Origin: Pseudomonadales bacterium
GTDB taxonomy: Bacteria; Pseudomonadota; Gammaproteobacteria; Pseudomonadales; JAHRWD01
NCBI GenBank assembly: GCA_029210125.1
Contig: JARGPR010000016.1
Location: 1-49,099, forward strand
Length of the DNA: 49,099 bases
Direction of reading: 5' to 3'
Each line of letters begins with the position of its first letter. The stretch's first letter is position 1. Below are positions 7,818 through 35,178 of the stretch, piece after piece. The position numbers and the translations under genes are program-made. The notes under the pieces were generated by a model. The model saw only the letters and a list, made by a program, of their open reading frames with translations. It ran no database searches and was not told the origin of the DNA.

Positions 7818-8066
7818 ATGGTCAGATTTCGCTTTAAAGAGCTGATGGCGGAAAAGGAGTTTCAAGAAGGCCGACGTATAACTTTGGAGGAAGTATCTAA
7901 AGCTACGGGTATTCATAGGACAACCCTTTCCAAGGTGTCTAATCAAAAAGGCTACAACACCACAACAGAGGTGCTCGATAAACTGTGCGAGTTCTTTGAT
8001 GTAGAGCTAGGGGCGCTTGCTGAGCATATTAAAGATGACAGTGAGGCAGATGCCAGTCATGAATGA
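7818..8066 (+). CDS. HTH (Xre/Cro-type) regulator of the defence block
   Basis: This is an 82-residue helix-turn-helix protein. The DNA-binding unit (about 20-65) reads ITLEEVSKATGIHRTTLSKV followed by LDKLCEFFDVELGALAE, which fits the short HTH_26/Cro-C1 class. It most likely represses or tunes the operon it heads, since the SNF2 helicase gene starts inside its last codons. ATG at 7818 has AAGG 8 bases upstream and lies just after the inferred transcription start; a reading from 7776 would begin inside the promoter. Small HTH genes of this type commonly lead defence operons. The operator and its control are inferred. Confidence 0.78.
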   Translation: MVRFRFKELMAEKEFQEGRRITLEEVSKATGIHRTTLSKVSNQKGYNTTTEVLDKLCEFFDVELGALAEHIKDDSEADASHE

Positions 8067-10935
8067 GATGAACTCAAACAGCAATCCCCCATGTAAAGAA
8101 AAATACACTAAGCATCAATCTCAGTATTTTGCATGGCAGCTCACTCGCCGACTCGATAGTGAAAACGAAGATAAGTTGACCGGTGCCATCATGGATGCCC
8201 AAATCGATCTAAACCCTCACCAGGTTGATGCGGCTCTATTCGCTTTTCGTAACCCACTATCAAACGGCGTAATCTTGGCTGATGAGGTGGGCTTAGGTAA
8301 AACTATTGAGGCTGGGCTGGTCATCGCCCAAAAATGGGCTGAAAGACGTCGTCGCATCCTTATTATTGTCCCTGCTAATCTTCGTAAACAGTGGCATCAA
8401 GAGCTTCAAGAAAAATTTGGTATTGATGCCATAATTCTTGATGGCGATAGTTACAAAAAATCAAAAAAAGAAGGCTGCAAAAATCCCTTTGATATTGAAG
8501 AAGGCGTTGTAATCTGCTCCTATCAATTTGCAAAAGCAAAAGCAGATGATATCCAAATGATCCCGCAGTGGGACTTGGCGGTAATCGACGAAGCCCATCG
8601 TCTCAGAAACGTTTACAAAAAAGGTAATAAAATTGCAAAAGCCATCGCGGATGCCCTTGGGAATGCTTATAAGGTAATGTTAACCGCTACACCATTACAA
8701 AATTCATTACTCGAATTGTATGGAATGGTGAGTATTATTGATGAAAAAATATTCGGTGACCTAGATAGCTTCCGTATTAAATACGGTCGAATTAACGATG
8801 CCACCTCATTTGGCGAATTAAGGCAGCGTATCAAGCCCGTTTGTAAGCGTACTTTAAGAAAAGATGTTGAAGCTTACGTTAAGTACACCAAGCGTATACC
8901 GATGATAGAGGAGTTTACACCGTCGTCGAATGAGCAATTACTTTATCAGATGGTATCCAGCTATCTACGCCGCCCTAACCTTAATGCGCTTCCTGATGGT
9001 CAACGCCAATTAATCTCCATGGTAATGTGGAAACTATTGGCCTCATCCTCCTTCGCCATCGCTGGGGCCCTAGGTACCATTAGAAAAAGATTGCTTGAAG
9101 GCCTGACTGATCAGTCTCTAACGCAGGCATTTGAACGCGAATATGAAGCCTTTGTAGAAACCCAAGAAGAGTGGGATGACGACGATCAATACTCCACCCC
9201 TCTCGCTGATCGGCAATCAGCTTTAGACGAAATAGAAGAGCTTGGTGCATATATTAAGCTTGCTGAGAGCATTGATGATAACGCCAAGGGTGAAAAGCTT
9301 TTAGATGCACTAAAAATCGCGTTTCAAAAGCTTGATGAGATTGGCGCACAAGAGAAAGCAATCATATTTACGGAGTCTAGAAAAACCCAAAGTTACCTGC
9401 TAAGAACGCTAGAGAAGAGTCAATATAAAGACGGCATTGTTTTGTTTAACGGAACAAACAATGATGCTCAAGCAAATAAAATATATAAAGACTGGGTAGT
9501 TAAGCATGCCGGAAGCGATAAAATTAGCGGCTCGAAAACTTCAGATACCCGCGCCGCGCTAGTTGAATATTTCCGTGATCAGGGAAAGATCATGATTGCA
9601 ACAGAGGCTGCTGCCGAGGGGGTGAATCTACAATTTTGCTCACTTGTTATTAATTATGATTTGCCTTGGAACCCTCAGAGGATAGAGCAGCGTATAGGTC
9701 GATGCCATCGGTACGGTCAAAAACATGATGTTGTAGTACTGAACTTCATTGACTCGACTAATGAAGCCGACAAACGCGTACACGAATTATTAAGACAGAA
9801 ATTTAATATATTTGATGGTGTTTTTGGTGCGTCAGATGAAGTGCTTGGAGCCATTGAAAATGGTGTGGATTTCGAGCGAAGAATCAAAAAGATCTATGAT
9901 AATTATCGCGACGCTCAAGATATCCAACGGGAATTCGACAAGCTTCAAGAGGATCTTGCCCACGAAATAAATCTTCAAATGGTTAATACCCGTGAAAAGC
10001 TGTTTGAGCATTTCGACGAAGATGTGCTGCAGAACATCAAAGTGGATACCATTAAATCTCTTAGTAAGTACGAACGTATGCTACTTGCTTTGACTAAAAG
10101 CGAGCTAGATGGCTGTCTGGATCTTATTGATGGTGGTTTCGTGATCAACCATCTGCCTCCACAAGCGCCCAAAGAAATCCCAACCGGTGAGTATGAGTTA
10201 CCTCGTAGAAAGGGAGATTGCCACCTATATCGGTTAAAGCATCCCCTCGCGCAATGGGCGATTGAAAACGCCAAGGCACATCAGTTAGAACAATCACATT
10301 TGGTCTTTTGTGCTGGCGCGAAAGACACTAAGGTCTCCGTAGTGCAAGAGCTTAAAGGCCAGTCCGGTCAGCTAAAAGCCACAAAGATTACCGTCGAATC
10401 CATGAAGCGTGCGGAAGACTATATCGTACTAACTGGTTTTAACGATGCAACTACAGCTGAGACCATGAGTTCAGAGGTCCTCGAAAAGCTAATGGCATTC
10501 CCGGTTTTAAGGTCTTCGAATGCAGCTTTTTTAGAAGCCCCGCAATTACAAGATCAACTATCACGCAGGAAAACAGAGATTCTTGGTGAAATCACTAGCC
10601 GAAATCTTCAGTATTTTGAGGGTGAAGTTGAAAAGCTCGAAGCCTGGTCAGACGACCTTAAAGTGGTATTAGAGCAAGATATAAAAGAAACCGATCGTGA
10701 GATTCGCGAAGTGCGCAGAACGGCTAAAATTGCGCCTGACCTCAATGAAAAGCTTCATTGGCAAAAACGCTTAAAAGATTTGGAGAAGCTGCGTAATAGA
10801 AAACGTAGAGATCTATTTGACAAGCAGGATGAAGTTGATGATCGACGTGAAGAATTGATCTCTGGATTAGAAGAAAAAATGAATCAAAAAATTGAAGAGT
10901 GTCATTTGTTTACTATTACTTGGGAAGTTGTTTAA
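8059..10935 (+). CDS. SNF2-type DEAD/DEAH helicase of the defence operon
   Basis: This 958-residue superfamily 2 ATPase would move along or remodel DNA using ATP. Motif I is ADEVGLGKT (about 74-82, RapA/HepA-like), motif II is DEAH (about 177-180) and motif III is TATPLQ (about 209-214). The second RecA domain ends with EAAAEGVNLQ and QRIEQRIGRCHRYGQ (roughly 525-570). The last 350 residues hold no motif I know and include a strongly charged, probable coiled coil (about 830-940). DISARM DrmD proteins share this helicase type, but no DrmA, B or C gene is present. I chose ATG 8059, which overlaps the HTH stop; ATG 8050 and 8068 are also possible. Its end overlaps the AIPR start by one base. Confidence 0.85.
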   Translation: MNEMNSNSNPPCKEKYTKHQSQYFAWQLTRRLDSENEDKLTGAIMDAQIDLNPHQVDAALFAFRNPLSNGVILADEVGLGKTIEAGLVIAQKWAERRRRILIIVPANLRKQWHQELQEKFGIDAIILDGDSYKKSKKEGCKNPFDIEEGVVICSYQFAKAKADDIQMIPQWDLAVIDEAHRLRNVYKKGNKIAKAIADALGNAYKVMLTATPLQNSLLELYGMVSIIDEKIFGDLDSFRIKYGRINDATSFGELRQRIKPVCKRTLRKDVEAYVKYTKRIPMIEEFTPSSNEQLLYQMVSSYLRRPNLNALPDGQRQLISMVMWKLLASSSFAIAGALGTIRKRLLEGLTDQSLTQAFEREYEAFVETQEEWDDDDQYSTPLADRQSALDEIEELGAYIKLAESIDDNAKGEKLLDALKIAFQKLDEIGAQEKAIIFTESRKTQSYLLRTLEKSQYKDGIVLFNGTNNDAQANKIYKDWVVKHAGSDKISGSKTSDTRAALVEYFRDQGKIMIATEAAAEGVNLQFCSLVINYDLPWNPQRIEQRIGRCHRYGQKHDVVVLNFIDSTNEADKRVHELLRQKFNIFDGVFGASDEVLGAIENGVDFERRIKKIYDNYRDAQDIQREFDKLQEDLAHEINLQMVNTREKLFEHFDEDVLQNIKVDTIKSLSKYERMLLALTKSELDGCLDLIDGGFVINHLPPQAPKEIPTGEYELPRRKGDCHLYRLKHPLAQWAIENAKAHQLEQSHLVFCAGAKDTKVSVVQELKGQSGQLKATKITVESMKRAEDYIVLTGFNDATTAETMSSEVLEKLMAFPVLRSSNAAFLEAPQLQDQLSRRKTEILGEITSRNLQYFEGEVEKLEAWSDDLKVVLEQDIKETDREIREVRRTAKIAPDLNEKLHWQKRLKDLEKLRNRKRRDLFDKQDEVDDRREELISGLEEKMNQKIEECHLFTITWEVV

Positions 10936-12638
10936 TGGCTAAAATAGGAATTCAGCCGTTGGAGTTGATCCAGTTGTGTGAGTTGTTGCATGGGAAGTTT
11001 GACGGTCACATTACAGGTACTGGTTCGGGAGATGTTGTAAAAGAACGCAACTTTTTCTCAAAGGCTCTAGCCGCGTATTATTTGGTGTCTGAGGCTGGCG
11101 CCACCATTGAAGATGCTGTATTAGCCTCTATTGACGGAGGCGACGATCATGGAATTGACTCAGTGTTCGTAGACGCTACCGAAACAATTTGGTTGATTCA
11201 ATCAAAGTATATTGATCGAGGTATCGGTGAGCCGGCCCTGGGGGATGTGAACAAATTCGAGAATGGTGTTAGAGATCTGTTACGCCAACAATACGATCGT
11301 TTCAATGATTCTTTACAAGCAAAGATTCCGCTTATTAATCGGGCGTTAGATTCGGGTGTATGCCAAGCAAAAGCCGTTTTAGTTTACACGGGTAGTGCGC
11401 TATCTGATGACCGGCGACGAATGATGGGGGATCTTGTAAACGCATTTACTTCTCCAGCGAGGAGGAACTTTCTTCGTTTTGTAAATGCTGGCTTAGAATC
11501 CTTTCATCAATATCATCTGAATGAAACTCTACCAGAACCGATCGCGCTGGAAGTTGAATTGGAGCAGTTTGGTTTTCTGGCGGAACCTTACCCGAGTTAC
11601 TACGGAGGATTAGATGCTAAACAAATAAAAGCATTTAAACAGATTCATGGCGACTACCTCTTTAACGCCAATATACGCCAGTTTAAAGGTAATACGGCGG
11701 TTAATAAGGATATAGTAAATACACTCACCGATACTCCTGAGAATTTCTTCTACTTTAACAATGGTGTGACGCTGCTTTGTGATGAAATACAGCAAATATC
11801 AGCCCACGATGAAACCAATCGACTTGGTAAATTTAGGTTGCGTGGAGTTTCGGTAATTAATGGCGCTCAAACCGTTAGCTGTATCGCTGATGCCGCCAGT
11901 GAGGATGAAAATAAGTCAACCGCTAAAGTAATGGCGACAATCATTAGCTTGGAAAATGCACCTGACCGTTTCGGTGAATCGGTTACGCAATACAGGAACA
12001 ATCAAAATGCTGTTTCTGATGTAGACTTTGCCGCACTTGATGAAAACCAACAGCAATGGGCAAGAACATTGGCTAATAGCGGAGTCAATTATCGCTATAA
12101 AGGTGGTTTGCAAGACGACGAAACGTTTAATTTGGAGTTTGCTGCTCGCGCTTTAGCGTGTTCATACTCATCTGATGAGTCATTACACCTCGTGGCATTG
12201 GCAAAAAAAGACAGTAAGAAACTTTTTTCGCGTGTAACTACAGCCGAAAACGATTCAATATATAAGATCATTTTCCCTGACACGCTCGAAGCAAGGGTTT
12301 TGTGGCGAGTAGTTCAAATTTGCCAAGAGGTGATTGACGTTATTTCACGGGAAGTAAAAAGTGCACACGGTTCCGATAAAGACATTATCTCCCATTCACG
12401 TTGGATGGTCTGTTATTTGGTGATATGTCGCAAGTTCGACTTAAAGCTTGAGCAAGAGATAACGTTAACCTTGATTCAAAAAAACCTGGTTCGAATAGAG
12501 GCCCAAAATATATCTCAACGGCTTATCACGGAGTTTAACAATAAAGGCTTTGGGAAGGCCCCGAAATCCGTATTTGAAAATCAAACCGATTTACAAACAT
12601 TAAAAGGCCCTGTAATGGCCGCATTGGCCAACGCATAG
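10935..12638 (+). CDS. AIPR-family abortive infection protein with nuclease-like N-terminus
   Basis: This is a 567-residue AIPR protein (abortive infection phage resistance, PF10592). The AIPR core is recognisable from FYFNNGVTLLCDE (about 272-284) and VSVINGAQT (about 305-313). Ahead of it, residues 70-92 read DDHGIDSVFVD followed by IWLIQSKY, the spacing of a PD-(D/E)XK / Mrr-like nuclease site (Asp, then Q-x-K); I infer a cutting domain. ATG at 10935 shares one base with the helicase stop codon, so the two are translationally coupled; the longer reading from 10899 overlaps the helicase gene. Its place between the helicase and Mod/Res suggests a shared defence role, perhaps as an effector. 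Family known, activity inferred. Confidence 0.85.
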   Translation: MAKIGIQPLELIQLCELLHGKFDGHITGTGSGDVVKERNFFSKALAAYYLVSEAGATIEDAVLASIDGGDDHGIDSVFVDATETIWLIQSKYIDRGIGEPALGDVNKFENGVRDLLRQQYDRFNDSLQAKIPLINRALDSGVCQAKAVLVYTGSALSDDRRRMMGDLVNAFTSPARRNFLRFVNAGLESFHQYHLNETLPEPIALEVELEQFGFLAEPYPSYYGGLDAKQIKAFKQIHGDYLFNANIRQFKGNTAVNKDIVNTLTDTPENFFYFNNGVTLLCDEIQQISAHDETNRLGKFRLRGVSVINGAQTVSCIADAASEDENKSTAKVMATIISLENAPDRFGESVTQYRNNQNAVSDVDFAALDENQQQWARTLANSGVNYRYKGGLQDDETFNLEFAARALACSYSSDESLHLVALAKKDSKKLFSRVTTAENDSIYKIIFPDTLEARVLWRVVQICQEVIDVISREVKSAHGSDKDIISHSRWMVCYLVICRKFDLKLEQEITLTLIQKNLVRIEAQNISQRLITEFNNKGFGKAPKSVFENQTDLQTLKGPVMAALANA

Positions 12639-12652
12639 GGGTATTTGAAAGA

Positions 12653-14407
12653 ATGAGCAGTAAAAATAAAACAAAATTAGAGCTTACCTGGATAGGAAAA
12701 GATAAGCGGCCGAAGTTAGAGCCTAGGATTTTATTAGAAGACCCATCGAAGTCCTATCATGCAAGCCACAAAGTGACCGAAAACGATATTTTTGATAACA
12801 AGCTGATTTTTGGAGATAACTTGCTGGCACTTAAGGCTTTGGAGCAAGAGTATGCTGGCAAGGTGAAGTGTGTGTATATCGACCCGCCATTTAACACAGG
12901 CGAGGCATTTGATAATTATGATGATGGACTTGAGCATTCAATATGGCTTTCTCTAATGAAAGAAAGAGCATACTACCTTCGGAATCTGATGACAGATGAC
13001 GGAACTTTGTTTGTGCATATTGATGACAATGAAATCGGATACTTAATAGTTATTTTGGATGAAATATTTGGGCGGTCTAATCGAATAAATATAATTACGT
13101 TTAAGCAGGGGTCGGCGACAGGGCATAAAGCAATAAATCCTGGGCTGGTGACGGTAACGAATTACCTGTTGGTATATGCCAAAGATAAATCTCAGTGGGC
13201 ACCGAAGCGCCTCTATACGGCTAGAGAGCGGGACTCGCGTTACTCACAAGTAATTGATAATTTCGAGGCTCATTACTCTAAGTGGAAACTCGCGCCGCTA
13301 AACAAGTATTTCGCGTCGATCAATGGACTAGAACCTAAGGAGTTAAAGCCTACTTTCGGAGATCAATTGGAATCGGAGCTTAATAAGTTTGTTATTAAAA
13401 ACGCGGATCGTGTCGTACAGCCTGCTCGCCCCGATTACAAGTCCGTAGGTCAAAACGTAAGAGATGCTATAGATGAATCAAAAGCGAATCCTGACTTGGT
13501 CATTCATCTGGAGCGAGACGGTTATGAGGATATGTATTTTCAAAAAGGGCAGCGATGGCTGTTTTACAAAAACAAGCTCAAACTAATTGACGGAGAGTAT
13601 GTTGCGGGGGAGCCTCTAACTAATTTATGGAGTGATCTTTTGTCCAATAACCTCCACAAAGAGGGTGGTATTAAATTCCCCAAAGGGAAGAAACCTGAAG
13701 CGCTTATAAAAAGAGTGATTGAGCTTAGTTCTGAACCTGGCGACATTGTTTTGGACTCATTTGCTGGTTCGGGTACAACTGCCGCGGTGGCTCATAAAAT
13801 GCGTCGTCGCTGGATCACGATTGAGCTAGGAGAACATTGTGAAACCCATATTTTGCCCAGGTTAAAATTGGTCGTTGACGGGTCTGATCAGGATGGCATT
13901 TCAAAGGCCGTTAACTGGCAAGGTGGTGGTGGCTTCCGCTATTACCGTTTGGCTCCATCACTATTAGAGCAAGATCGCTGGGGCCGTTGGGTGATCAGCA
14001 AAGATTATGATGCTGCCATGTTGGCAGAAGCGATATGCAAATTGGAAGGCTTTACCTACGCACCTTCCGACATTGAATGGTGGAATCATGGCTATTCCAC
14101 CGAACAAGATAGAATCTATGTCACCACTCAGACGCTTTCTGTTGAGCAGTTACAGGCATTATGTGAGGAAGTCGGCGAAGATTATAGTGTGTTGGTTTGT
14201 TGCAGCGCATTTCGCTGCAAGGCCGATCGTTTTCCTAATCTTACGTTAAAGAAAATCCCCAAAATGGTGTTGTCACGCTGTGAGTACGGCCACGATGATT
14301 ACAGCTTAAATGTAGAAAACCTACCCATGCAGGAAAAGCCTAAACCCGATCCATCGCAAGGTGGCTTGTTTCAAGATGAAATGTTTGACGATAACGGACA
14401 AGGCTAG
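12653..14407 (+). CDS. Type III Mod-like DNA adenine methyltransferase
   Basis: This is a 584-residue site-specific DNA methyltransferase of the type III Mod class. The N-terminus reads LELTWIGKDKRPKLEPRIL, typical of the family. Motif IV is YIDPPFNTGE (about 75-84) and motif I is DSFAGSGTT (about 366-374). Motif IV before motif I makes it a beta-class N6-adenine enzyme. The long segment between them (about 130-330) is the target recognition part, and a further C-terminal domain (about 420-570) follows. It would mark host DNA at a short asymmetric site so that Res does not cut it; the target cannot be read from the sequence. It lies 14 bases after AIPR and 14 before Res, in one operon. Confidence 0.9.
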   Translation: MSSKNKTKLELTWIGKDKRPKLEPRILLEDPSKSYHASHKVTENDIFDNKLIFGDNLLALKALEQEYAGKVKCVYIDPPFNTGEAFDNYDDGLEHSIWLSLMKERAYYLRNLMTDDGTLFVHIDDNEIGYLIVILDEIFGRSNRINIITFKQGSATGHKAINPGLVTVTNYLLVYAKDKSQWAPKRLYTARERDSRYSQVIDNFEAHYSKWKLAPLNKYFASINGLEPKELKPTFGDQLESELNKFVIKNADRVVQPARPDYKSVGQNVRDAIDESKANPDLVIHLERDGYEDMYFQKGQRWLFYKNKLKLIDGEYVAGEPLTNLWSDLLSNNLHKEGGIKFPKGKKPEALIKRVIELSSEPGDIVLDSFAGSGTTAAVAHKMRRRWITIELGEHCETHILPRLKLVVDGSDQDGISKAVNWQGGGGFRYYRLAPSLLEQDRWGRWVISKDYDAAMLAEAICKLEGFTYAPSDIEWWNHGYSTEQDRIYVTTQTLSVEQLQALCEEVGEDYSVLVCCSAFRCKADRFPNLTLKKIPKMVLSRCEYGHDDYSLNVENLPMQEKPKPDPSQGGLFQDEMFDDNGQG

Positions 14408-14421
14408 GGGCGGGATAAAAA

Positions 14422-17166
14422 ATGACAACAAATACAATCAACCCAACAAATGCGCGAATTCTTAAAGCGATCACTGGTCGCTTGAGTTTGCGAAAACCTC
14501 AAGAAGATTCGCTTATTGCGCTAGCTCTGGCAATAGCGACCGCTCCGGATACGCTTGAGCAATCTCGTGATATTGAGTCTTTACTTAAAACTTTGAGTGC
14601 TGAGTTTCCAACCCTTTCAGATTTCGAACGAGAGTTCCCATCTTTGTGCTTTGCCCTGGCAACGGGTGTAGGTAAAACGCGATTAATGGGAGCATTTATT
14701 AGCTATCTACATCAAGCCCATGGCATTAATAATTTCTTTGTGTTGGCACCTAACCTCACTATCTATAATAAATTGATAGCTGATTTTGATGATACCGCTT
14801 CTGCTAAATATGTATTTAGAGGGATCGCTGAGTTCGCAGTAACACGCCCGATTGTGATTACCGGAGATAATTACGAGCAAAAAGGCGCACAACTTAGACA
14901 AGACTTGTTTGGTCAGGCTCAGGAGGTACGCATCAATGTATTTAACATTGCAAAAATTGTCTCTGAAGTGCGTGGTGGTAAAGCACCAAAGATGAAGCGT
15001 ATGAACGAGGTTCTGGGGGACAGTTACTTCAACTATCTATCCGAATTGGATGATTTGGTGTTACTAATGGATGAGTCTCATCGTTATCGAGCAAATGCCG
15101 GTATGCGGGCCATCAATGAACTGAAACCACGCTTGGGACTGGAGTTAACCGCTACCCCCTTTACCGAATCTAATCGCGGTCCTGTACCCTTTAAGAATGT
15201 AGTGGTGGATTATCCCCTGGCTTGCGCTATGGATGACGGCTTCGTAAAGGAGCCCGCTGTTGTAACACAACGTAACTTTGACCCGAAACAATATAGCCCC
15301 GAAGGCTTGGAAACTGTAAAGCTTGAAGATGGGGTGCGCCTGCATGAAGCGACCAAGCTGGAGTTGTTTACCTATGCCAAACAGCACAGCGTTAAGGTGG
15401 TTAAACCCTTTATGCTGGTGATTGCACGCGATACCGCCCATGCAGCACAATTACTTGAACGCATTGAGTCTGACGGATTTTTTAATGGTGCTTATAAGGG
15501 TAAAGCTATTCAGGTAGATAGTTCCCAAAGCGGTGCAGCAGAAGAAGAAATGATTTTGCGCTTGTTGGCGGTTGAAAGCGTGGACGAACCTACCGAAATT
15601 GTTATCCACGTGAATATGCTGAAAGAAGGTTGGGACGTGACTAACCTTTACACCATAGTCCCTTTACGTGCTGCAAATGCAAGAACGCTTATTGAGCAGT
15701 CCATTGGGCGTGGTTTACGTTTACCTTACGGCAAGCGCACGGGTGTGGATGTGGTGGATCGATTAAATATCGTAGCCCATGATCGTTTCCAAGAAATCGT
15801 TGATGAGGCAAATAACCCCAACAACCCTTTGCGTTTACGTCAAGTTATTCTGGATAAAGACGATACCGAGCAATCTAAAGATAGCGTAGCGGTAACATCT
15901 CGATTAGAAGGTTTATTTACAGGAAAATCTGTACAAAGCGCGACAGGGTTTGATTATTCAAGTTCAAATAAAACTACGTATGAAATTCCTAGGCCAGTAT
16001 TTAATGGGGTAACAGAACGTGAGGTAGCGTTAACGACATTGCGTGTTCTGCAAAGCTATCAAACCAAACCGAATGAGGCTCCTACTAGTAAAGCCCTTTT
16101 GAATGCAGACGTACAAGCAGAAGTATATAAAGCTGTTTCTGAGCAGCTTAGTGGTCAGCAGCAATCCCTTTTAGAGAATGAAGAAAAAGTTAGCTTACAA
16201 GATGTCATCTCTAAGGCGACGGCGTTAGTGGTAGAACAAACAATTGATATTCCCCGAATTGTTGTCATGCCTTCAGGTGAAATCACCTACGGGTATACCC
16301 CGTTCCTGTTAGAAATGGGACAATTAAATCTTCAGCCAACTAACCGCGAGTTAATTTCACAGAGTCTGCAAACCAATGAGCAAGTGAGTATTTCATCGTT
16401 GCCAGAACGAAAATATACTCGATTAGAAGACTATATTGTTGAACACTTGGTGGACTACGACGATATTTCCTACGATGAACATGCCGAATTGATTTACGAC
16501 TTGGCTACACAATCAGTCAACTACTTTCGCGATGTGAGCGAATACAGTGAAGACGAACTGCACAATATCTTCTTCGGCTTTGGTAAGCGAATCGCTGAGA
16601 ATATTCACGCGCAAATGGCTGAGCACTATTGGGAAAAAGCTAGTAGCTATGAAACCTCGATTACAGCTGGTTTCGTTAAATTGCAGGATGCCGCTTACAC
16701 CACCGGCGAGAAGGAAATTCACAATCTACGCAACACGTTGCAAGACAAAGGCAAGATTAAAAAAATGCTTTTTGGTGGCTTTCGCAAATGTCTCTACGAT
16801 GTGCAGAAGTTTGATTCTGATACTGAGCGTACATTCGCTCTCATTCTAGAGCGCGAAGCTATTAAATGGTTCAAACCAGTTAGTGGTCAATTCAAAATTT
16901 ACTATAAAGATGGTATTCATCACCGCGAGTACCTTCCTGACTTTGTCGCTGAGCTTGATGACAGAGTCATTATGGTAGAGACCAAAGCTCGCCGAGACAT
17001 GACTGATACATTGGTGGAAAGCAAAGCTGAGGCTGCCAAAAAGTGGTGTGTGAATGCAACAGACTACTTAATCAGAAATGGCGGTAAACCATGGGAGTAC
17101 ATTTTGATCGCCCATGATGATGTGCATGAAAATAGAGATTTAAAAGGGTTTGCTTCAATAATGTAA
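14422..17166 (+). CDS. Type III Res-like helicase-nuclease
   Basis: This is a 914-residue restriction subunit of the type III kind. Motif I is FALATGVGKTR (about 79-89), motif II is LMDESHRYR (about 215-223), followed by ELTATPF. The second ATPase domain includes NMLKEGWDVTNLY and EQSIGRGLRLPYG (about 425-440). At the C-terminus, LPDFVAELDD (about 837) and MVETKA (about 852-857) form a PD-(D/E)XK nuclease site. All catalytic residues expected for ATP use and cutting are present. With the Mod just upstream it should form a complete type III restriction-modification pair. It is the last gene of the first defence transcript; a decayed gene follows. Confidence 0.9.
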   Translation: MTTNTINPTNARILKAITGRLSLRKPQEDSLIALALAIATAPDTLEQSRDIESLLKTLSAEFPTLSDFEREFPSLCFALATGVGKTRLMGAFISYLHQAHGINNFFVLAPNLTIYNKLIADFDDTASAKYVFRGIAEFAVTRPIVITGDNYEQKGAQLRQDLFGQAQEVRINVFNIAKIVSEVRGGKAPKMKRMNEVLGDSYFNYLSELDDLVLLMDESHRYRANAGMRAINELKPRLGLELTATPFTESNRGPVPFKNVVVDYPLACAMDDGFVKEPAVVTQRNFDPKQYSPEGLETVKLEDGVRLHEATKLELFTYAKQHSVKVVKPFMLVIARDTAHAAQLLERIESDGFFNGAYKGKAIQVDSSQSGAAEEEMILRLLAVESVDEPTEIVIHVNMLKEGWDVTNLYTIVPLRAANARTLIEQSIGRGLRLPYGKRTGVDVVDRLNIVAHDRFQEIVDEANNPNNPLRLRQVILDKDDTEQSKDSVAVTSRLEGLFTGKSVQSATGFDYSSSNKTTYEIPRPVFNGVTEREVALTTLRVLQSYQTKPNEAPTSKALLNADVQAEVYKAVSEQLSGQQQSLLENEEKVSLQDVISKATALVVEQTIDIPRIVVMPSGEITYGYTPFLLEMGQLNLQPTNRELISQSLQTNEQVSISSLPERKYTRLEDYIVEHLVDYDDISYDEHAELIYDLATQSVNYFRDVSEYSEDELHNIFFGFGKRIAENIHAQMAEHYWEKASSYETSITAGFVKLQDAAYTTGEKEIHNLRNTLQDKGKIKKMLFGGFRKCLYDVQKFDSDTERTFALILEREAIKWFKPVSGQFKIYYKDGIHHREYLPDFVAELDDRVIMVETKARRDMTDTLVESKAEAAKKWCVNATDYLIRNGGKPWEYILIAHDDVHENRDLKGFASIM

Positions 17167-17484: not shown

Positions 17485-18612
17485 ATGCCCAAAAAGGAAA
17501 CAGCAGATTCTGTTCAGGCTCACACGGAAGCAAAACTTCAGTTTTATACCAAATACCTGGAGCGATATCTCCAAATCCTTTTGGTCGCACAGGGCATTAA
17601 CAAGATCAATATTTACGACCTGTACTGCGGTGCTGGGCAGTATTCTGATGGCAACACGGGTAGTGCTGTGAGGGCCGTGGATGCTGTTTGGGCGGCCCAG
17701 GTTAAAAACACGCTGAGAAAGGCCGTTAACTTGCATTTGAACGATCTGAATGTGGAAAAAGTTGCCAACCTGAGGGGGATATTGGCCAACAAAGAATCTG
17801 CCGAAAAGCGATTTTCTATTTCTTTTTCGACTTTTGAAGCTTTCGAGTTTTTAAGGAAGATTGCACCAGAGTTGCCTAAACAAGATAGTCAAACACGTAA
17901 TTTACTGTTTATCGATCCATACGGTTATAAGGACATTGACAAGCAAAGCCTTCATACGGTGTTGAGTTCGGGCAGGACAGAGGTCGTGCTGTTTTTGCCA
18001 ATAGAGCAAATGTATCGATTTAGAAATAAAACTACAGATGATGAAGTCGACAATTCCTATGTGCCATTGAAACACTTTGTCGAGCAATTTGAGTTAGATG
18101 TCGCGTCAATTTGTAGCGAGAAAGATTTCATTTCTGCCCTGGAGGCGGCACTTAGTTTTGGTGGTAAATACTACACAGCTTCATACAGTATTAGGAACCA
18201 CACCGGACACCACTATGGAATGTTTTTTATCACATCAAACCTATTGGGTTTGGAAAAGATAATTGAAGTTAAATGGGAACTGGATTCTCAGCGGGGTCAA
18301 GGCTTTACCGGTAATGATCAACTCGACTTTTTCCTTGAGACGGATCGGTTGTCGGATTTAAGGGGCGTAATTGTTGACCTTGTCGGGAGTGAGGAAATTG
18401 ATAATAGATCCATGTATGAATTTGTACTTAAAAAGGGCTTTCGCCCGAAGCATGCAAATGAAGTATTGCGGCGACTATTTGACGATGGCTTAATTCATAC
18501 TGTTGATGCGATCAGTCAGCAGCGCGCAAGAAAAGGAAGCTTCAAACTGAACTACAGAGAATTTAAAACAGATAGGGCCTCAATAATTTATCGGGGAGGC
18601 TCTGGAGAGTAA
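17485..18612 (+). CDS. tcmP: Three-Cys-motif partner protein TcmP, copy 1
   Basis: This is a 375-residue TcmP-family protein (TIGR04474), named because it is encoded beside a three-Cys-motif DUF5131 protein, as here. The N-terminal half looks like a methyltransferase-type Rossmann fold: YDLYCGAGQYSDG (about 44-56) resembles the SAM-binding loop and FIDPYGY (about 142-148) a motif IV. The C-terminal part (about 290-360) looks like a winged-helix segment (EFVLKKGFRPKHANEVLRRL). The activity is not established; methyl transfer or a nucleotide-modifying reaction is inferred. GGAGG at 17474-17478 is 6 bases from the ATG. The stop lies 2 bases from the DUF5131 start, so the two are coupled. Confidence 0.8.
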   Translation: MPKKETADSVQAHTEAKLQFYTKYLERYLQILLVAQGINKINIYDLYCGAGQYSDGNTGSAVRAVDAVWAAQVKNTLRKAVNLHLNDLNVEKVANLRGILANKESAEKRFSISFSTFEAFEFLRKIAPELPKQDSQTRNLLFIDPYGYKDIDKQSLHTVLSSGRTEVVLFLPIEQMYRFRNKTTDDEVDNSYVPLKHFVEQFELDVASICSEKDFISALEAALSFGGKYYTASYSIRNHTGHHYGMFFITSNLLGLEKIIEVKWELDSQRGQGFTGNDQLDFFLETDRLSDLRGVIVDLVGSEEIDNRSMYEFVLKKGFRPKHANEVLRRLFDDGLIHTVDAISQQRARKGSFKLNYREFKTDRASIIYRGGSGE

Positions 18613-18614
18613 CT

Positions 18615-19355
18615 ATGAGCAAAATTGAGTGGACAGAACAAACCTGGAATCCTGTTACCGGCTGCACCAAAGTATCGCCAGGCTGTAAGTATTGCTACGC
18701 TGAAACAATGTCCAAACGCTTGCAAGCTATGGGTTCCCCTGGTTACGAAAATGGTTTTCAGCTAAGTATTCTTCCTGAGCGTCTCAAGCAACCCTATCTT
18801 CGTCGAAAGCCAACCATGTATTTTGTTAATTCGATGAGCGATCTTTTTCAGGATGGTGTACCTGAAGAATTTATTGAAAAGGTTATGCAAGTGATCGAGG
18901 AAACTCCGCATCACACTTATCAAATTTTAACCAAGCGCAGTAAGAATATGCGCGATTTTTTCTTAAATAGGAAGGTGCCTGATAACGCTTGGCTTGGTGT
19001 ATCAGTAGAAGATAAGAAGTATGGTAAACCTCGCATCTGTGACTTGATAGAGATTAAAGCTAAGACCCGTTTTCTTTCCGTCGAACCACTATTGGAAGAC
19101 CTAGGGCGTATTCGTTTGAAAGGCATTCACTGGGTGATAGTTGGTGGAGAGTCCGGAGTTGGCGCGCGCCCTATGAAAGAAGAATGGGCGCTAAAAGTAA
19201 AGAGTCAATGCCTGAATGCAGGCGTGGATTTCTTCTTTAAGCAATGGGGTGCTTGGGGATCAGATGGTGTTCACCGAAACAAGAAGGCTAATGGTCGAAA
19301 ACTACAAGGGCAAACATGGAACGAAATGCCCAAAGCGCTCATCGCTGTCGGGTAA
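18615..19355 (+). CDS. DUF5131 (phage Gp37/Gp68-like) three-Cys-motif protein
   Basis: This is a 246-residue DUF5131 protein (PF07505). The start reads IEWTEQTWNPVTGC, followed by KVSPGCKYCYAE, so Cys 17, 24 and 27 form a C-x6-C-x2-C cluster. This resembles, but is not identical to, the C-x3-C-x2-C of radical SAM enzymes. Other conserved family parts are YFVNSMSDLF (about 74-83), WLGVSVED (about 125-132), RFLSVEPLLEDLG (about 152-164) and GGESGVGARP (about 177-186). The barrel-like pattern and clustered cysteines suggest an iron-sulfur radical SAM-type enzyme; the substrate is unknown. It is flanked on both sides by TcmP genes, its expected partners. Confidence 0.85.
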   Translation: MSKIEWTEQTWNPVTGCTKVSPGCKYCYAETMSKRLQAMGSPGYENGFQLSILPERLKQPYLRRKPTMYFVNSMSDLFQDGVPEEFIEKVMQVIEETPHHTYQILTKRSKNMRDFFLNRKVPDNAWLGVSVEDKKYGKPRICDLIEIKAKTRFLSVEPLLEDLGRIRLKGIHWVIVGGESGVGARPMKEEWALKVKSQCLNAGVDFFFKQWGAWGSDGVHRNKKANGRKLQGQTWNEMPKALIAVG

Positions 19356-19373
19356 GGCTCAAGGAGAATTCTT

Positions 19374-20624
19374 TTGACTGCCAAAAGCTATGATTGGGAA
19401 GGCGGCGCGATATTAGAGCCTCACACAAAGAAAAAACACAAAGTATTAAAAGAGTATTTTCGGCAATACCTTATTACGAGATGCCAGCTTCCTCAGCAAA
19501 ATCGATTCCGGTTAGTTGTCGTTGATGGCTTCGCTGGCGGCGGTTTATACGAATGTGGTAGCTATGGATCGCCGCTCATCTTTGTTGATGTCCTCCTTGC
19601 AACAGCAACTGAAATTAATACTACTAGGGCAGTCAACGGTCTCGGCCCTATCAATATTGAATGCTTGCTGCTTCTCAATGACTATGATAGATCTGTCGTT
19701 GAACTACTTAAAAAAAATATAGCTCCCTTGCTGGTGGGGACGAAGGAAGAGTCTTCTCATACAATTGTCGAGGTCGAGTTCTACAACGGAAAATTCGAGT
19801 ATCTTTACTGGGGTGAAATTAAATCTAGAATTCTGCGCGCAAATTGTAGGAATGTTTTTTTTAATCTAGATCAGTGCGGTTACTCAAACGTCACATCACC
19901 TATTATTCGCGACATTATATTTTCTTGGAAGTCCGCAGAGATTATTTTGACATTCATGATTGCCAGCATGCTGGCTTATCTATCTCCGAAGTCTGGATCT
20001 TCTGGGGTTCCTTTAGAGCCTGAGATTAAAGCTAAGATTGATGCACTGTTACATAATAATCAGATAAATAAAAAAGAATGGTTGGCAGAGTCTGAAAAAG
20101 TTGTTTTTGAGTTTTTAAAGGGCTGCGCTCCATTTGTTAGTCCCTTTTCGATTAATAATCACAATGGATGGCAGTATTGGCTGATGCATTTCGCCAGCTC
20201 TTATCGTGCTCGGCAGGTCTATAACAATGTTCTTCATCTGGATTGCGATACGCAGGCTCATTTTGGACGTTCTGGCCTCCACATGTTGTCCTATGATCCT
20301 CAGTATGATGGTCAACTTTATTTATTTGATGATGATTCTCGAAAGGCGGCAAAAGAAGAATTGTATGATGATATTCCCAGGCTTGTTGGGCAATCGGGAG
20401 ACGTTTTGTTAATGGGTGATTTTTATGAAGCCGCTTACAGTGAAACGCCAGCCCATAGTGAAGATATTCATGAAATGATCATGGAAAACCCTGATTTGGA
20501 AGTGATTACTTCAGCGGGCGGAGAGAGACAGAAAGCTCATACAATAAAGGTTGACGACACGTTGAGATTGAAATCACAACGGAGTATGTTTTTTTTGTTT
20601 TCTGGAAAGGATGGTGACCACTAA
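19374..20624 (+). CDS. tcmP: Three-Cys-motif partner protein TcmP, copy 2 (divergent)
   Basis: This 416-residue TcmP-like protein is clearly different from copy 1 at 17485. The N-terminal loop is VDGFAGGGLYECG (about 50-62), like a SAM-binding motif. Where copy 1 has FIDPYGY, this one has FNLDQCGY (about 163-170), so the DP of the motif IV-like site is DQ; it may be catalytically altered or belong to another subfamily. The rest (about 230-400) has no motif I recognise. Translation starts at TTG 19374, with AGGAG 7 bases upstream. It begins 18 bases after DUF5131 and ends the defence block. Confidence 0.72.
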   Translation: MTAKSYDWEGGAILEPHTKKKHKVLKEYFRQYLITRCQLPQQNRFRLVVVDGFAGGGLYECGSYGSPLIFVDVLLATATEINTTRAVNGLGPINIECLLLLNDYDRSVVELLKKNIAPLLVGTKEESSHTIVEVEFYNGKFEYLYWGEIKSRILRANCRNVFFNLDQCGYSNVTSPIIRDIIFSWKSAEIILTFMIASMLAYLSPKSGSSGVPLEPEIKAKIDALLHNNQINKKEWLAESEKVVFEFLKGCAPFVSPFSINNHNGWQYWLMHFASSYRARQVYNNVLHLDCDTQAHFGRSGLHMLSYDPQYDGQLYLFDDDSRKAAKEELYDDIPRLVGQSGDVLLMGDFYEAAYSETPAHSEDIHEMIMENPDLEVITSAGGERQKAHTIKVDDTLRLKSQRSMFFLFSGKDGDH

Positions 20625-28047: not shown

Positions 28048-28929
28048 TTATTTGTCTCGACATGTCTCGTTTGGAAATTCCAATTCTATTGTTGTATGCG
28101 ATAAGTCATAGGGAATTAGCAGTGTTGCTATCTCATCCTTTATTTTGGTCTGAACTAAAGGGTCAATAGAGTTATTAAGGGTAAGGTGAGCGGTTAAAAC
28201 ATTGTTATTGCCATCAAGTGACCAGAGATGAATATGATGAACATCACTGATATAGGTTAATGATTGCAGATCATTTATAATTTTTAGCCGGACTGTCTTA
28301 TCAGGTGTTGCCTGTAGAAAAATCCGAATGGTGGAAACAAGATTCTTCGCCACATTAATTAAAATAAATAAGGTAAAACCGATTGATAATACTGGGTCCA
28401 AAATGGGGAGGTCGACGAATAGTAAAATGATTGCGACAATGAGGACTGCGAACCAGCCAAGCACATCTTCAAGTAAATGCCAGTTTAGAATACGCTCATT
28501 TAATGATTTTCCGGCACTTAATTTATAAGCCGCAAAGCCGTTGACTAAAACTCCGAAGATGGCCAGTGCTATCATCCCTTCAGCATGTGGCATTTGTGGG
28601 TTTAACAATCGTGGCAGGGCTTCGCTCAATACCCAAATTGAGCCACCAACAAGTACTGCGCCATTAATTAGTGCGCTCAGCAATGAAAACCGTTGATAGC
28701 CATAGCTGAAGCTTTCATCGGCAGATTTGTCGGATACTTTGTTAAGCAGCCAAGCGAGTCCAATGGACAAGCTATCGCCAAGATCGTGAACGGCGTCAGC
28801 CATGATGGCTGTACTGTTGGTCAGCCAGCCGCCGATAAACTCGATAATGGTAAAGCCGACATTGAGGAAGAAGGCCCAGCCAATACGTTTAGAGGAATCA
28901 TTGTTGTCGCTGTGGACGTGATTGTGCAT
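28048..28929 (-). CDS. czcD: CzcD-like cation diffusion facilitator
   Basis: This is a 293-residue CDF-family transporter that would export Zn, Co or Cd from the cytoplasm against protons. A His-rich N-terminus (MHNHVHSDNN) is followed by six membrane segments. The zinc-site residues appear in MADAVHDLGDS (about 44-54, HD-x2-D) and again in the fifth segment (LEDVLGW). The C-terminal cytoplasmic domain (about 205-290) includes DVHHIHLWSLDG, the usual metal-sensing ferredoxin-like fold. The length is typical. It is the last gene of the minus-strand czc series and lies 2 bases after the DUF6316-like gene, so it is likely cotranscribed with it. Confidence 0.9.
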   Translation of the reverse strand: MHNHVHSDNNDSSKRIGWAFFLNVGFTIIEFIGGWLTNSTAIMADAVHDLGDSLSIGLAWLLNKVSDKSADESFSYGYQRFSLLSALINGAVLVGGSIWVLSEALPRLLNPQMPHAEGMIALAIFGVLVNGFAAYKLSAGKSLNERILNWHLLEDVLGWFAVLIVAIILLFVDLPILDPVLSIGFTLFILINVAKNLVSTIRIFLQATPDKTVRLKIINDLQSLTYISDVHHIHLWSLDGNNNVLTAHLTLNNSIDPLVQTKIKDEIATLLIPYDLSHTTIELEFPNETCRDK

Positions 28930-28931
28930 GG

Positions 28932-29114
28932 TTAGCCTTCCGCTTTCATTTTTTCAAGATAGTTGGCGAGTTGTTTCTTGGCGTCTTCTTTAGTTGGGAA
29001 TGGTCCTAAATTTTCTCCGCCTCTCGTTAAAAAATACCATTGACTATTTATACAATTAACTCGATGTGTTCTGAATTGAACTCTCGTTAAGGAATCCTCT
29101 TTGCGTTGCATCAT
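28932..29114 (-). CDS. Small DUF6316-like protein
   Basis: This is a 60-residue protein with RVQFRTHRVNCINSQWYFLTRGG followed by LGPFPTKEDAKKQLANYL. The pattern (R-T-x-R, W-Y/F-F-x-T-R, GPF-x-x-x-x-x-A) looks like the DUF6316 family of short proteins; I am only fairly sure of that family. No signal peptide or metal motif is present. Its ATG (29114) has GAGGA about 5 bases upstream on its strand. It lies between the PII-like gene and czcD, after a strong hairpin, so it may be expressed from processed mRNA. The function is unknown. Confidence 0.6.
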   Translation of the reverse strand: MMQRKEDSLTRVQFRTHRVNCINSQWYFLTRGGENLGPFPTKEDAKKQLANYLEKMKAEG

Positions 29115-29129
29115 TAGGTCCTCAAAGTG

Positions 29130-29165
29130 CTAACCCATGAAATAAAACATGTTCTCATGGGTTAG
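29130..29165. repeat. Hairpin between the PII-like and DUF6316-like genes
   Basis: CTAACCCATGA (29130-29140) and TCATGGGTTAG (29155-29165) form a perfect 11-base stem with a 14-base loop. Neither strand has a U-run after it, so an mRNA stability or processing element is likelier than a terminator. Confidence 0.55.
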
Positions 29166-29177
29166 CTATCCTTGGCT

Positions 29178-29498
29178 TTAATTATCCGGGCCGCCAATCG
29201 GTAATGCTTGCTCTATAGGGCTAACATAAACCCAGCCGGAGATGTTAGGCCCAATTCTTCCCGTCGTACGAATAATTCCAGTGACGTCATCGACTTGTGA
29301 ATCTTCGCAGACTAATGAAATTCGAACTTCAGAAATAATGACTCCAGCATCAGTAGAATACGTTTGTTCGGATTCATTAAGTGGCTTTAACGTTCCTTTC
29401 ACATCGAGCAGGGTTATATTTTTATAACCGGCGTCACGCAGTGCTTCGACGACGATGGCAGAACGGACATGGTGTATAAATGCTTTGATTTGTTTCAT
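29178..29498 (-). CDS. PII-like signalling protein linked to the metal pump
   Basis: This is a 106-residue protein of the GlnB/PII superfamily. The start MKQIKAFIHHVRSAIVVEALRDAG fits the first strand and helix, a T-loop-like section occupies about 35-60, and the second half (VDDVTGIIRTTGRIG) fits the nucleotide-binding part. PII-like proteins of a group encoded beside heavy-metal RND pumps are known, and this one follows czcA directly. It may bind a nucleotide or metal and tune the pump or its expression; this is inferred. I chose ATG 29498, which has GGAG 7 bases upstream; the longer frame from 29582 adds an odd hydrophobic stretch with no such site. Confidence 0.75.
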   Translation of the reverse strand: MKQIKAFIHHVRSAIVVEALRDAGYKNITLLDVKGTLKPLNESEQTYSTDAGVIISEVRISLVCEDSQVDDVTGIIRTTGRIGPNISGWVYVSPIEQALPIGGPDN

Positions 29499-29581
29499 GA
29501 CGTTACTCCATGGTTTAAACAATTGTTTATGGTTGATGTGGCCATAGAGAAGGTACACAACTATGGCCACTTTCTTAAGCA

Positions 29582-32500: not shown

Positions 32501-32725
32501 ACCCGTGATCGCAAGCTCGACTAAATAGGTGATGCGTTGCTCAACTTCCAGCGGTGAATAACCGGGTGCCTCGGTATTGATTTGTACCTGAACATTGGTG
32601 ATATCGGGTACTGCATCAATCGGCAGGTTTTGATAATTCCAGATACCCAGTGCACTGACGACGAGAACAAAAAACATCACCAGCCAACGGCGGGCAATAG
32701 AAAACTGAATAAGTTTATCGATCAT
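29582..32725 (-). CDS. czcA: CzcA heavy-metal RND efflux pump
   Basis: This is a 1047-residue inner-membrane RND transporter, the proton-driven pump of the CzcCBA complex. It has the usual layout of two repeats: a membrane segment at 10-30, a large periplasmic domain, then six segments, repeated. The family start IQFSIARRWLVM and LPIDAVPDITNVQVQI are present. In the fourth segment, DFGLIVDGAVIIVEN (about 403-417) has the two Asp and the Glu that carry protons in zinc/cobalt/cadmium-type pumps; copper/silver pumps differ here. This points to Zn, Co or Cd. Length and ends are normal. The gene follows czcB after two hairpins in a 90-base gap. Confidence 0.93.
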   Translation of the reverse strand: MIDKLIQFSIARRWLVMFFVLVVSALGIWNYQNLPIDAVPDITNVQVQINTEAPGYSPLEVEQRITYLVELAITGLPYVESTRSLSRYALSQVTVVFEKGTDIYFARNLINERLQQAKSDMPSGIEPVMGPVATGLGEIFHYAVHADEDARQANGEKYDATALRTLQDWVIRPQLRLVPGVTEINTIGGFEKEFHITPDPSQLLAFDLSFDDLVEAIEKNNANVGAGYIEKNGEQYLIRAPGQVADIAAIENVIVAHKDGIPITIADVADVGFGKQLRTGAATRDGEETVLGTAVMLLGGNSRSVSEAVSAKLVAINKTLPKGITAEPVYNRTVLVDKTIATVQKNLLEGAVLVVVVLLVMLGNVRAALLTAMVIPLSMLMLMTGMVQTKVSANLMSLGALDFGLIVDGAVIIVENCILRLAGRQHHLGRILNLDERFQTVFSATREVFTPSLISVLVVILVNLPILALTGVEGKMFTPMAMAVIIALLSALVLSLTFVPAAVALLLSGHIEEKDNIIVRQSKRAYTPILAWVLKFRLGVLAGAVLFVIGVGGLATKMGTEFIPNLDEGDIAIQALRIPGTSLTQSLDMQFKLERAVLEIPEVKTYFSRVGTAEVASDPMGPNISDGYVMLKDHADWPDPDKSKAQLLDDIQQKLALIPGNAFEISQPIQLRFNELISGVRSDLGIKIYGDDLDQLLKSGTEIAAVLNGIEGAEGVKVEQVSGLPILSIEANRSALYRYGLNVADVQEVLAAATGGEEAGLIFEGDRRFTIVVRVAEKIRNDLRALERLPIPLPQGGYVPVNEVATLSLAPGPNQISRENGKRRLVVSANVRGRDLGGFVTDVQAQIEQQVMLPPGYWLEYGGTFEQLQSATERLSLLVPVTLVMIFALLMMTFGSAKDAALVFSGVPLALTGGVIALWLRDIPLSITAGVGFITLCGVSVLTGVMMVSAFRDSLKQGDDIDTSIQQGAMLRLRPILMVALVAALGFLPMALNTSTGAEVQRPLATVVIGGIISSTLLTLLVLPGLYRMAYRKPKNMTEGSENQMAS

Positions 32726-32747
32726 AGCGAGGCCCTTTTATGGTCTC

Positions 32748-32801: not shown

Positions 32802-32815
32802 TGCGTAGGTGGTGA

Positions 32816-35088: not shown

Positions 35089-35130
35089 GTGAAAAATCCA
35101 CGTTTAATTTAATAGACGAAATCATGCTGA

Positions 35131-35154: not shown

Positions 35155-35178
35155 GATTAAATTGAGGTAAACGTAGGT

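What the first reader, a model, noticed from the sequence alone, without database searches (positions are those of the whole stretch)
17485..20624. Two unequal TcmP proteins flank one three-Cys DUF5131 enzyme
TcmP and DUF5131 are known as a pair. Here DUF5131 is sandwiched between two TcmP-like proteins that differ at the motif IV-like site (DPYG at 17485 copy, DQCG at 19374 copy). Cysteines in DUF5131 are C-x6-C-x2-C, close to but not the standard radical SAM spacing. A two-subunit partner, one active and one changed, would be new.
Basis: partly seen in the sequence, partly recalled or inferred. Interest (0 to 1): 0.66.

Follow-up and report, generated by a model that had tools for sequence, protein, structure and literature searches.

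The report
Radical-SAM enzyme with two unlike partners
Three neighbouring genes on a mobile element encode one predicted radical-SAM enzyme flanked by two different forms of its usual partner protein, an unlike pairing that turns up again in other bacteria and suggests one enzyme served by two kinds of guide subunit.

Summary
In detail: TcmP-A (DPYG), DUF5131 (C-x6-C-x2-C) and TcmP-B (DQCG) form one tight + strand cluster inside an integrative conjugative element. TcmP–DUF5131 pairs are already catalogued (TIGR04474, PF07505, PADLOC candidates PDC-M30/M41), but I found no functional study. Two patterns look new. First, the residue after the motif-IV Asp is P or Q in all 218 collected TcmP ORFs that have the column (185 distinct; one S among 60 viral ones), with only 4 changes on a TcmP tree. 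Second, all 21 loci found with two TcmPs near one DUF5131 hold one P and one Q, from about 11 P lineages. P-only and Q-only loci are each commoner, so Q is not simply a dead subunit of P. DUF5131 lineages change partner type at least 18 times by parsimony. DUF5131 has a predicted radical-SAM fold (nearest: spore photoproduct lyase, viperin); TcmP-B has an RlmJ-like methyltransferase fold. Both classes keep the equivalents of RlmJ Lys18 and Asp164; neither has DPPY. Best reading: one shared radical-SAM enzyme with two class-distinct nucleic-acid-recognition partners, probably a mobile defence or modification module. "One active, one changed" is not shown; function is untested.

The parts
17485..18612 (+). 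TcmP-A, P class (IDPYG), 375 aa, RlmJ-like N-terminal part plus C-terminal GMT-like winged helix
   Evidence: TIGR04474 134 bits over cut-off 53; GMT-wHTH 31.7 bits over cut-off 27; PADLOC PDC-M30A 372.7 bits; nearest collected relative L106, 55.6% over 365 aa
17914..17919 (+). D144-P145 of TcmP-A, motif-IV-like site
   Evidence: same column as D166-Q167 of TcmP-B and aligned to D-P of the RlmJ DPPY motif by profile comparison
18615..19355 (+). DUF5131, predicted radical-SAM enzyme, 246 aa
   Evidence: PF07505 357.8 bits; model pLDDT 84.6, pTM 0.84; best structural matches spore photoproduct lyase Z 13.2, viperin-like 12.4, RlmN 11.3
18663..18695 (+). three-Cys motif C17-x6-C24-x2-C27 of DUF5131
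   Evidence: sequence; C-x6-C-x2-C-Y in 139 of 140 and 98 of 98 viral
19374..20624 (+). TcmP-B, Q class (LDQCG), 416 aa, TTG start
   Evidence: TIGR04474 181.6 bits; GMT-wHTH 26.3 bits, just under its cut-off 27; model pLDDT 86.5, pTM 0.86; top ten VIA rows are the RlmJ family, Z 14.4-16.6; nearest collected relatives L070 62.9%, L006 61.9%
19869..19874 (+). D166-Q167 of TcmP-B, motif-IV-like site
   Evidence: alignment column; aligned to D-P of RlmJ's motif IV

Best explanation
A self-contained, mobile nucleic-acid-modifying module (candidate anti-phage system) in which one radical-SAM enzyme, DUF5131, is shared by two TcmP partners of different classes. Each TcmP is an RlmJ-like methyltransferase-fold protein with a C-terminal winged helix that binds DUF5131 and presents a nucleic-acid target to it, or methylates the same target. 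The motif-IV residue (P or Q) differs at the base-contacting position and so marks two target or chemistry classes; a two-TcmP locus therefore covers both with one enzyme. In the window a P>DUF5131 pair like that of L106 has gained a Q-class TcmP whose nearest relatives sit beside a different DUF5131 lineage. Shown: gene content, motif classes, trees, recurrence, predicted folds. Inferred: complex formation, nucleic-acid target, defence role, meaning of P versus Q.
For: All 21 two-TcmP loci are P+Q, 0 PP and 0 QQ; chance 3.6e-4 if 11 P lineages count as events, 0.013 if only the 6 origins forced by strongly supported branches of the DUF5131 tree count. P-only 27 and Q-only 24 of 80 loci, so either class can serve alone. 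The DUF5131 tree needs 18 P/Q changes among single-type loci against 4 on the TcmP tree, which means partners are exchanged. The window DUF5131 is 79% identical to that of the P-only locus L106, but only 48-49% to those beside the nearest TcmP-B relatives L006 and L070. In seven comparisons of sister two-TcmP loci, dN/dS is 0.05-0.13 for P, DUF5131 and Q wherever it could be computed. Nearest neighbours are not conserved: the commonest Pfam family is in 3 of 103. Folds: radical SAM and RlmJ. PADLOC lists the pair as candidate defence.
Against: 12 of 80 DUF5131 loci (8 of 56 with at least 3 kb on both sides) show no TcmP within 3.5 kb, and 38 of 80 viral ones show no P or Q TcmP (one of these has an S form; contig ends not filtered), so TcmP is not always the partner. 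With only six forced origins, the heterotypic pattern is weak statistically. In L049, L050 and L084 the P copy is convergent, and in L085, L138, L149 and L095 other orientations occur, so not all sets are operons; in Sinorhizobium meliloti a TcmP gene (SMa2243) is listed beside hna (passage, PMC12445080), so P there may belong with the helicase. No complex was predicted, and no nucleic acid target or defence activity was tested.
Confidence: 0.42

Rival explanations
1. P and Q TcmPs of two-TcmP loci form a heterodimer (as active and helper subunits do in some methyltransferases), and DUF5131 acts on or with that heterodimer as a three-protein enzyme. This is.
For: 21 of 21 two-TcmP loci are heterotypic; several trios are co-directional with short gaps, such as the window, L092, L096 and L112; both genes stay under purifying selection where computable.
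Against: P-only and Q-only loci are each commoner than P+Q (27 and 24 against 14 of 80); the P partners belong to about 11 unlike lineages, which a fixed heterodimer interface would hardly allow; several trios are convergent or divergent.
Confidence: 0.22
2. Chance assembly of two systems: a complete P>DUF5131 pair plus a Q TcmP left over from a second pair that lost its own DUF5131. No joint function.
For: The window's TcmP-B relatives sit beside another DUF5131 lineage. Defence genes gather in the same cargo site. Five of 86 TcmP-bearing genomes in four surveys have adjacent copies, so it is not frequent.
Against: It predicts PP and QQ sets too; none was found in 21. Sister two-TcmP loci of different genera keep all three genes with low dN/dS where computable. 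The 18-nt gap before TcmP-B resembles the DUF5131>Q gap of ordinary pairs.
Confidence: 0.22
3. A DNA-lesion or base-reversal module rather than defence: a spore-photoproduct-lyase-like radical-SAM enzyme guided to altered DNA or RNA, in some loci under a LexA/S24-type regulator.
For: Spore photoproduct lyase is the top structural match by Foldseek and VIA. A gene annotated S24 family peptidase precedes DUF5131 in L032; similar ORFs precede it in L097, L099 and L102; 2 of 103 nearest neighbours match Peptidase_S24.
Against: A shared fold shows no function, and viperin and RlmN are close behind (Z 12.4 and 11.3 against 13.2). Only a few loci have such a regulator.
Confidence: 0.14

Closest known systems
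TcmP-DUF5131 pair (NCBIfam TIGR04474 with Pfam PF07505; annotated 'three-Cys-motif partner protein TcmP' and 'phage Gp37/Gp68 family protein')
   Same: Both families, adjacency and the three-Cys motif are as annotated in public plasmids.
   Different: Ordinary pairs have one TcmP; here one P-class and one Q-class TcmP flank one DUF5131.
PADLOC-DB candidate defence systems PDC-M30 and PDC-M41
   Same: TcmP-A matches PDC-M30A at 372.7 bits; DUF5131 matches PDC-M30B and PDC-M41B at 369.4 and 357.3 bits.
   Different: These candidates have an A and a B component; TcmP-B is only a distant match to M30A (72.7 bits). They are computational candidates; PDC-M30 was predicted in 32 strains of a 100-strain P. 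aeruginosa panel, 68.8% of the 32 phage-resistant (passages, PMC10855318), a correlation only.
RlmJ, 23S rRNA A2030 N6-methyltransferase
   Same: TcmP-B model matches it best by VIA (Z up to 16.6); profile alignment places K, the motif-I D..G.G and the motif-IV D together. RlmJ-type proteins are the weak tail of TIGR04474 searches (one checked: L023, PF04378 208 bits).
   Different: No PF04378 match for either window TcmP at E up to 1; motif IV is DPYG or DQCG instead of DPPY; a winged helix follows; the pair with DUF5131 has no RlmJ counterpart.
Spore photoproduct lyase and other radical-SAM enzymes (viperin, RlmN, lipoyl synthase)
   Same: The first 41 VIA rows for DUF5131 are radical-SAM enzymes.
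   Different: Cysteine spacing C-x6-C-x2-C instead of C-x3-C-x2-C (the standard spacing is recalled); 13% identity or less to the spore photoproduct lyases.
NCBIfam TIGR04471, radical SAM mobile pair protein A
   Same: DUF5131 matches at E 4.7e-27 over residues 9-210, which ties it by sequence to a family named radical SAM.
   Different: 94.9 bits, far under the cut-off of 355; partner proteins differ.

Membership tests
TcmP (TIGR04474) | Score over the curated cut-off (53 bits) for both copies | tested here: met
   134 and 181.6 bits
TcmP (TIGR04474) | Encoded beside a three-Cys DUF5131/PF07505 protein | tested here: met
   2-nt and 18-nt gaps; PF07505 357.8 bits
DUF5131 (PF07505) | Score over gathering cut-off and conserved three-Cys motif | tested here: met
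   357.8 bits against 28.9; motif in 139 of 140 collected ORFs
Radical SAM superfamily | Radical-SAM barrel fold | tested here: met
   Predicted model only: VIA Z 13.2 over 191 residues, 2.9 A, to spore photoproduct lyase; first 41 rows radical SAM; Foldseek E 1.6e-4
Radical SAM superfamily | Three-cysteine motif for a 4Fe-4S cluster with the standard spacing | tested here: not met
   Spacing is C-x6-C-x2-C; other spacings exist in the superfamily (recalled). VIA range 4 to 77 would put C17 near residue 90 of spore photoproduct lyase, but residue pairs were not shown
Radical SAM superfamily | 4Fe-4S cluster and reductive SAM cleavage | not testable with these tools
   needs purified protein
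RlmJ family | Match to PF04378 | tested here: not met
   no match at E up to 1 for either TcmP
RlmJ family | Motif IV DPP(Y/F) | tested here: not met
   DPYG and DQCG; RlmJ motif from passages of PMC3814359
RlmJ family | RlmJ-type fold with equivalents of Lys18 and Asp164 | tested here: met
   VIA Z up to 16.6 for TcmP-B, though Foldseek ranks RlmJ only 20th; K 100% in 56 Q1 and 73 P rows; D in all classified copies. TcmP-A was not modelled
PADLOC PDC-M30 | A and B components side by side | tested here: met
   TcmP-A 372.7 bits and DUF5131 369.4 bits, adjacent
PADLOC PDC-M30 | Anti-phage activity | not testable with these tools
   candidate system; two other PADLOC candidates tested by others showed no activity (passages, PMC12409345)
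Spore photoproduct lyase | Overall fold and substrate chemistry of that enzyme | tested here: inconclusive
   best fold match, but 13% identity and viperin within 1 Z unit

The most novel reading that the evidence does not exclude
A heteromeric radical-SAM nucleic-acid-modifying enzyme that by rule pairs one P-class and one Q-class RlmJ-like partner: the two motif-IV classes recognise or prepare two different bases (or two steps on one base) and together with DUF5131 make a modification that neither makes alone, used by mobile elements against phages or rival elements.
Probability: 0.22. Interest if true: 0.78.

Novelty: new variant of a known kind. Interest (0 to 1): 0.5.

Why it matters
TcmP and DUF5131 are widespread on plasmids, phages and integrative elements, yet text searches for DUF5131, for the TcmP names, and for Gp37Gp68, PF07505 and TIGR04474 turned up no functional study in the open library. 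The P/Q split gives a single-residue, testable handle on what TcmP does. The P+Q loci provide natural sets in which one radical-SAM enzyme can be assayed with two partners. If true, it would tie an RlmJ-like methyltransferase fold to a spore-photoproduct-lyase/viperin-like radical-SAM enzyme in a mobile module, a combination not described in anything I read.

Tried and rejected
Q as a decaying or dead copy: rejected as the default, because Q-only loci are common, Q has low dN/dS where computable and keeps K, D and GSP/GTP-type residues. Synonymous sites are near saturation in many comparisons; of 7 comparisons dN/dS was computable in 5 for P, 5 for DUF5131 and 6 for Q.

Two strict clades: rejected as too simple. 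Q comprises a 56-row clade with one P member (L052, DPCG) and a second 10-row clade next to TcmP-A's own P relatives.

TcmP-DUF5131 fusion (L211) as proof of contact: rejected. The DUF5131 part is frameshifted, so this is a broken locus. L223's second TcmP is one broken Q gene, not two copies.

Conserved third partner: none seen. The nearest-neighbour set (103 of 112 neighbours picked, from the 56 loci with long flanks; proteins of 900 aa or more were dropped) has no family in more than 3 members. PADLOC models matched were mostly restriction-modification: 218 families against 83 for the 96 outermost genes of the same loci. This is a count of models, not genes, so only a weak sign of a defence setting.

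Sequence search of solved structures: no match at E up to 1 for any of the three proteins. Viral scan with TcmP-A: 8 stretches, no relative. Viral scans with DUF5131 and TcmP alignments: 98 loci (a few contigs twice), no two-TcmP locus. TcmP-A in 398 genomes of the phylum: weak matches in 5 others.

Rows dropped: re-fetched copies of the same gene were left out of trees and locus counts (lists inside). The TcmP tree has 140 rows; L220 and L103's P copy are not on it. L103's P copy is split over two frames and counted as P. The 11 P lineages are my own grouping at about 55% identity (L049 placed). Loci L002-L082 carry only short flanks; second copies there rest on the genome-wide lists.
Full report
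What is there. Three intact + strand genes lie at 17485-18612 (TcmP-A, 375 aa), 18615-19355 (DUF5131, 246 aa) and 19374-20624 (TcmP-B, 416 aa), with gaps of 2 and 18 nt and ribosome-binding-like stretches before each start. Both outer proteins pass TIGR04474 (134 and 181.6 bits, cut-off 53) and the middle one passes PF07505 (357.8 bits). The P/Q difference sits in one alignment column. A C-terminal GMT-like winged helix is over the cut-off in A (31.7 bits, cut-off 27) and just under it in B (26.3 bits). The genome has one DUF5131 and two TcmP matches.

Where it lies. The window is a PFGI-1-type integrative conjugative element (TraD, TIGR03747, RAQPRD, TIGR03745, TIGR03746, TIGR03752, TraC). 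The trio ends a cargo block that also holds a DrmD-like helicase, an AIPR protein, and type III-like Mod and Res (8017-17166). There are 319 nt between Res and TcmP-A that contain no convincing promoter or terminator by simple scan (promoter-like sites no more than in shuffles).

What the family looks like elsewhere. Plasmid records show ordinary pairs in two orders: DUF5131>TcmP (for example L033-L036, L046-L049) and TcmP>DUF5131 (L053, L054). PADLOC-DB lists the pair as candidates PDC-M30 and PDC-M41. A genome-contig scan with seven DUF5131 sequences returned the best 80 of 554 confirmed loci.

P and Q. Of 226 TcmP ORFs, 218 have the motif column: 118 DP, 100 DQ, nothing else; 8 fragments lack it. 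Duplicates included, these are 103 DP and 82 DQ distinct C-terminal sequences. Among viral contigs: 41 DP, 18 DQ, one DS, one fragment. On a 140-row tree built without the motif columns the state changes 4 times (3 forced by starred branches; shuffled mean 46.8). There is one large Q clade (56 Q and one P), one small Q clade (10 rows, mostly Bacteroidota), and P elsewhere. TcmP-B lies in the large Q clade; TcmP-A is P and shares a 17-row clade with the small Q clade. So P and Q are stable states, though not exactly two clades.

Two-TcmP loci. In the 80 loci, P alone was found in 27, Q alone in 24, P+Q in 14, unclassifiable copies in 3 and no TcmP in 12; restricted to 56 loci with at least 3 kb on both sides the numbers are 17, 19, 11, 1 and 8. 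Adding the window, L049, L050, L083, L084, L085 and L220 gives 21 two-TcmP loci, all P+Q, no PP, no QQ. In four TIGR04474 surveys (369, 398, 385 and 399 genomes, partly overlapping) I count 86 distinct genomes with a copy over the cut-off; five have two adjacent copies (G000, G587, G615, G671, G1250), all P+Q by the fetched loci. Collapsed to about 11 P lineages (my grouping), all-heterotypic has chance 3.6e-4; with the 6 origins forced on the DUF5131 tree it is 0.013. The Q copy is in the large Q clade in the 20 loci on the tree; L220 was not placed. Orientations vary: P>DUF>Q>, DUF>Q>P>, DUF>Q>P<, DUF>Q<P> and P<DUF>Q>.

Who brought what. The window's DUF5131 is 79% identical to that of L106, a P>DUF locus without Q, whose TcmP is also the nearest to TcmP-A (55.6%). 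TcmP-B's nearest relatives (L070 62.9%, L006 61.9%) sit beside DUF5131s only 48-49% identical to the window's; L004 (56%) sits beside one at 64%. The DUF5131 tree puts the window in an 11-row clade of 7 P, 3 P+Q and 1 without TcmP, and needs 18 P/Q changes among single-type loci (many branches weak, 38 of 173 starred). So partners change and Q was added here. In sister two-TcmP loci all three genes show dN/dS of 0.05-0.13 wherever it could be computed.

Folds. DUF5131: model pLDDT 84.6, pTM 0.84. Foldseek's six best are spore photoproduct lyase structures (E 1.6e-4 to 1.9e-3). VIA gives spore photoproduct lyase Z 13.2, viperin-like 12.4, SuiB 11.6, RlmN 11.3; the first 41 rows are radical-SAM enzymes. 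It also matches TIGR04471, radical SAM mobile pair protein A, at E 4.7e-27, under its cut-off. TcmP-B: pLDDT 86.5. VIA's first ten rows are the RlmJ family (Z 14.4-16.6), the next unrelated row 14.0; Foldseek instead leads with spermidine synthases and O-methyltransferases and has RlmJ at rank 20 (E 6.7e-4). Profile comparison of TcmP with RlmJ gives E 9.2e-5 (Q-rich set) and 5.9e-5 (P-rich set), at probabilities of only 59 and 65%, and aligns D-P/Q with the D-P of DPPY.

What P or Q could mean. In RlmJ, Asp164 and Lys18 are the proposed catalytic residues, Ser100, Asp164 and His19 contact the cofactor, and in related enzymes the carbonyl of the first Pro contacts the base (passages, PMC3814359). 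TcmP keeps the Lys in 100% of 56 Q and 73 P rows; Q keeps Gly-Ser/Thr-Pro throughout and Lys-His in 95%, P in a minority. Neither class has DPPY. Hence both may bind SAM, and Q is if anything closer to RlmJ in the cofactor site. The swap is at a base-contacting position, which favours a change of target over loss of function. This is inference.

Judgement. Best: a shared radical-SAM enzyme with two class-distinct partners (0.42). Rivals: a P-Q heterodimer (0.22), chance assembly (0.22), a lesion-reversal module (0.14). The defence label rests on PADLOC's candidate list, the cargo site and a strain correlation in P. aeruginosa (passages, PMC10855318); two other PADLOC candidates tested elsewhere showed no activity (passages, PMC12409345). 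I found no paper on DUF5131 by name and only passing mentions of TcmP; subscription journals are mostly outside the library.

Noticed in passing
window 8017-17166: Tight + strand run of a DrmD-like SNF2 helicase (NF038318 667 bits, under its cut-off of 950), an AIPR/AbiU-like protein, a type III-like Mod and a ResIII protein: a possible composite restriction system.
   Followed up: partly
window 28048-38940: Metal-handling cargo in the same element: CDF transporters, CzcA-type efflux pump with adaptor and outer membrane part, and a Ftr1/EfeU-like protein; RadC follows at 44593-45180.
   Followed up: no
L032 8354-8992; L097 7330-7992; L099 7354-7992; L102 7278-7967: A gene annotated S24 family peptidase (L032) or an ORF resembling a LexA-type regulator (the others, by eye) lies directly upstream of DUF5131, in L097, L099 and L102 between the P TcmP and DUF5131.
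   Followed up: no
L034, L035, L036: In Pseudomonas plasmids the DUF5131>TcmP-Q pair directly follows a site-specific integrase gene, with a DNA-binding protein gene divergent to it; the resemblance to the recombinase module of some Tn3-family transposons is recalled.
   Followed up: no
L106 5-6800: The nearest P>DUF5131 relative follows an operon with an MmeI-type methyltransferase, RhuM, a helicase-like protein and a T5orf172 nuclease-domain protein.
   Followed up: partly
L290 3654-4946: A viral-contig TcmP with DS in place of DP or DQ, the only exception seen.
   Followed up: no
L052 6001-7257: A plasmid TcmP (Roseibium aggregatum) inside the large Q clade that has DP (DPCG), an apparent return to P.
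   Followed up: no
L211 808-2418: An in-frame TcmP-DUF5131 fusion in a frameshifted, apparently decaying locus.
   Followed up: yes
L083 10847-15529: The second P>DUF5131>Q trio (G587) stands just upstream of genes that look like a Tn7-type transposition set (by eye from the translations).
   Followed up: no
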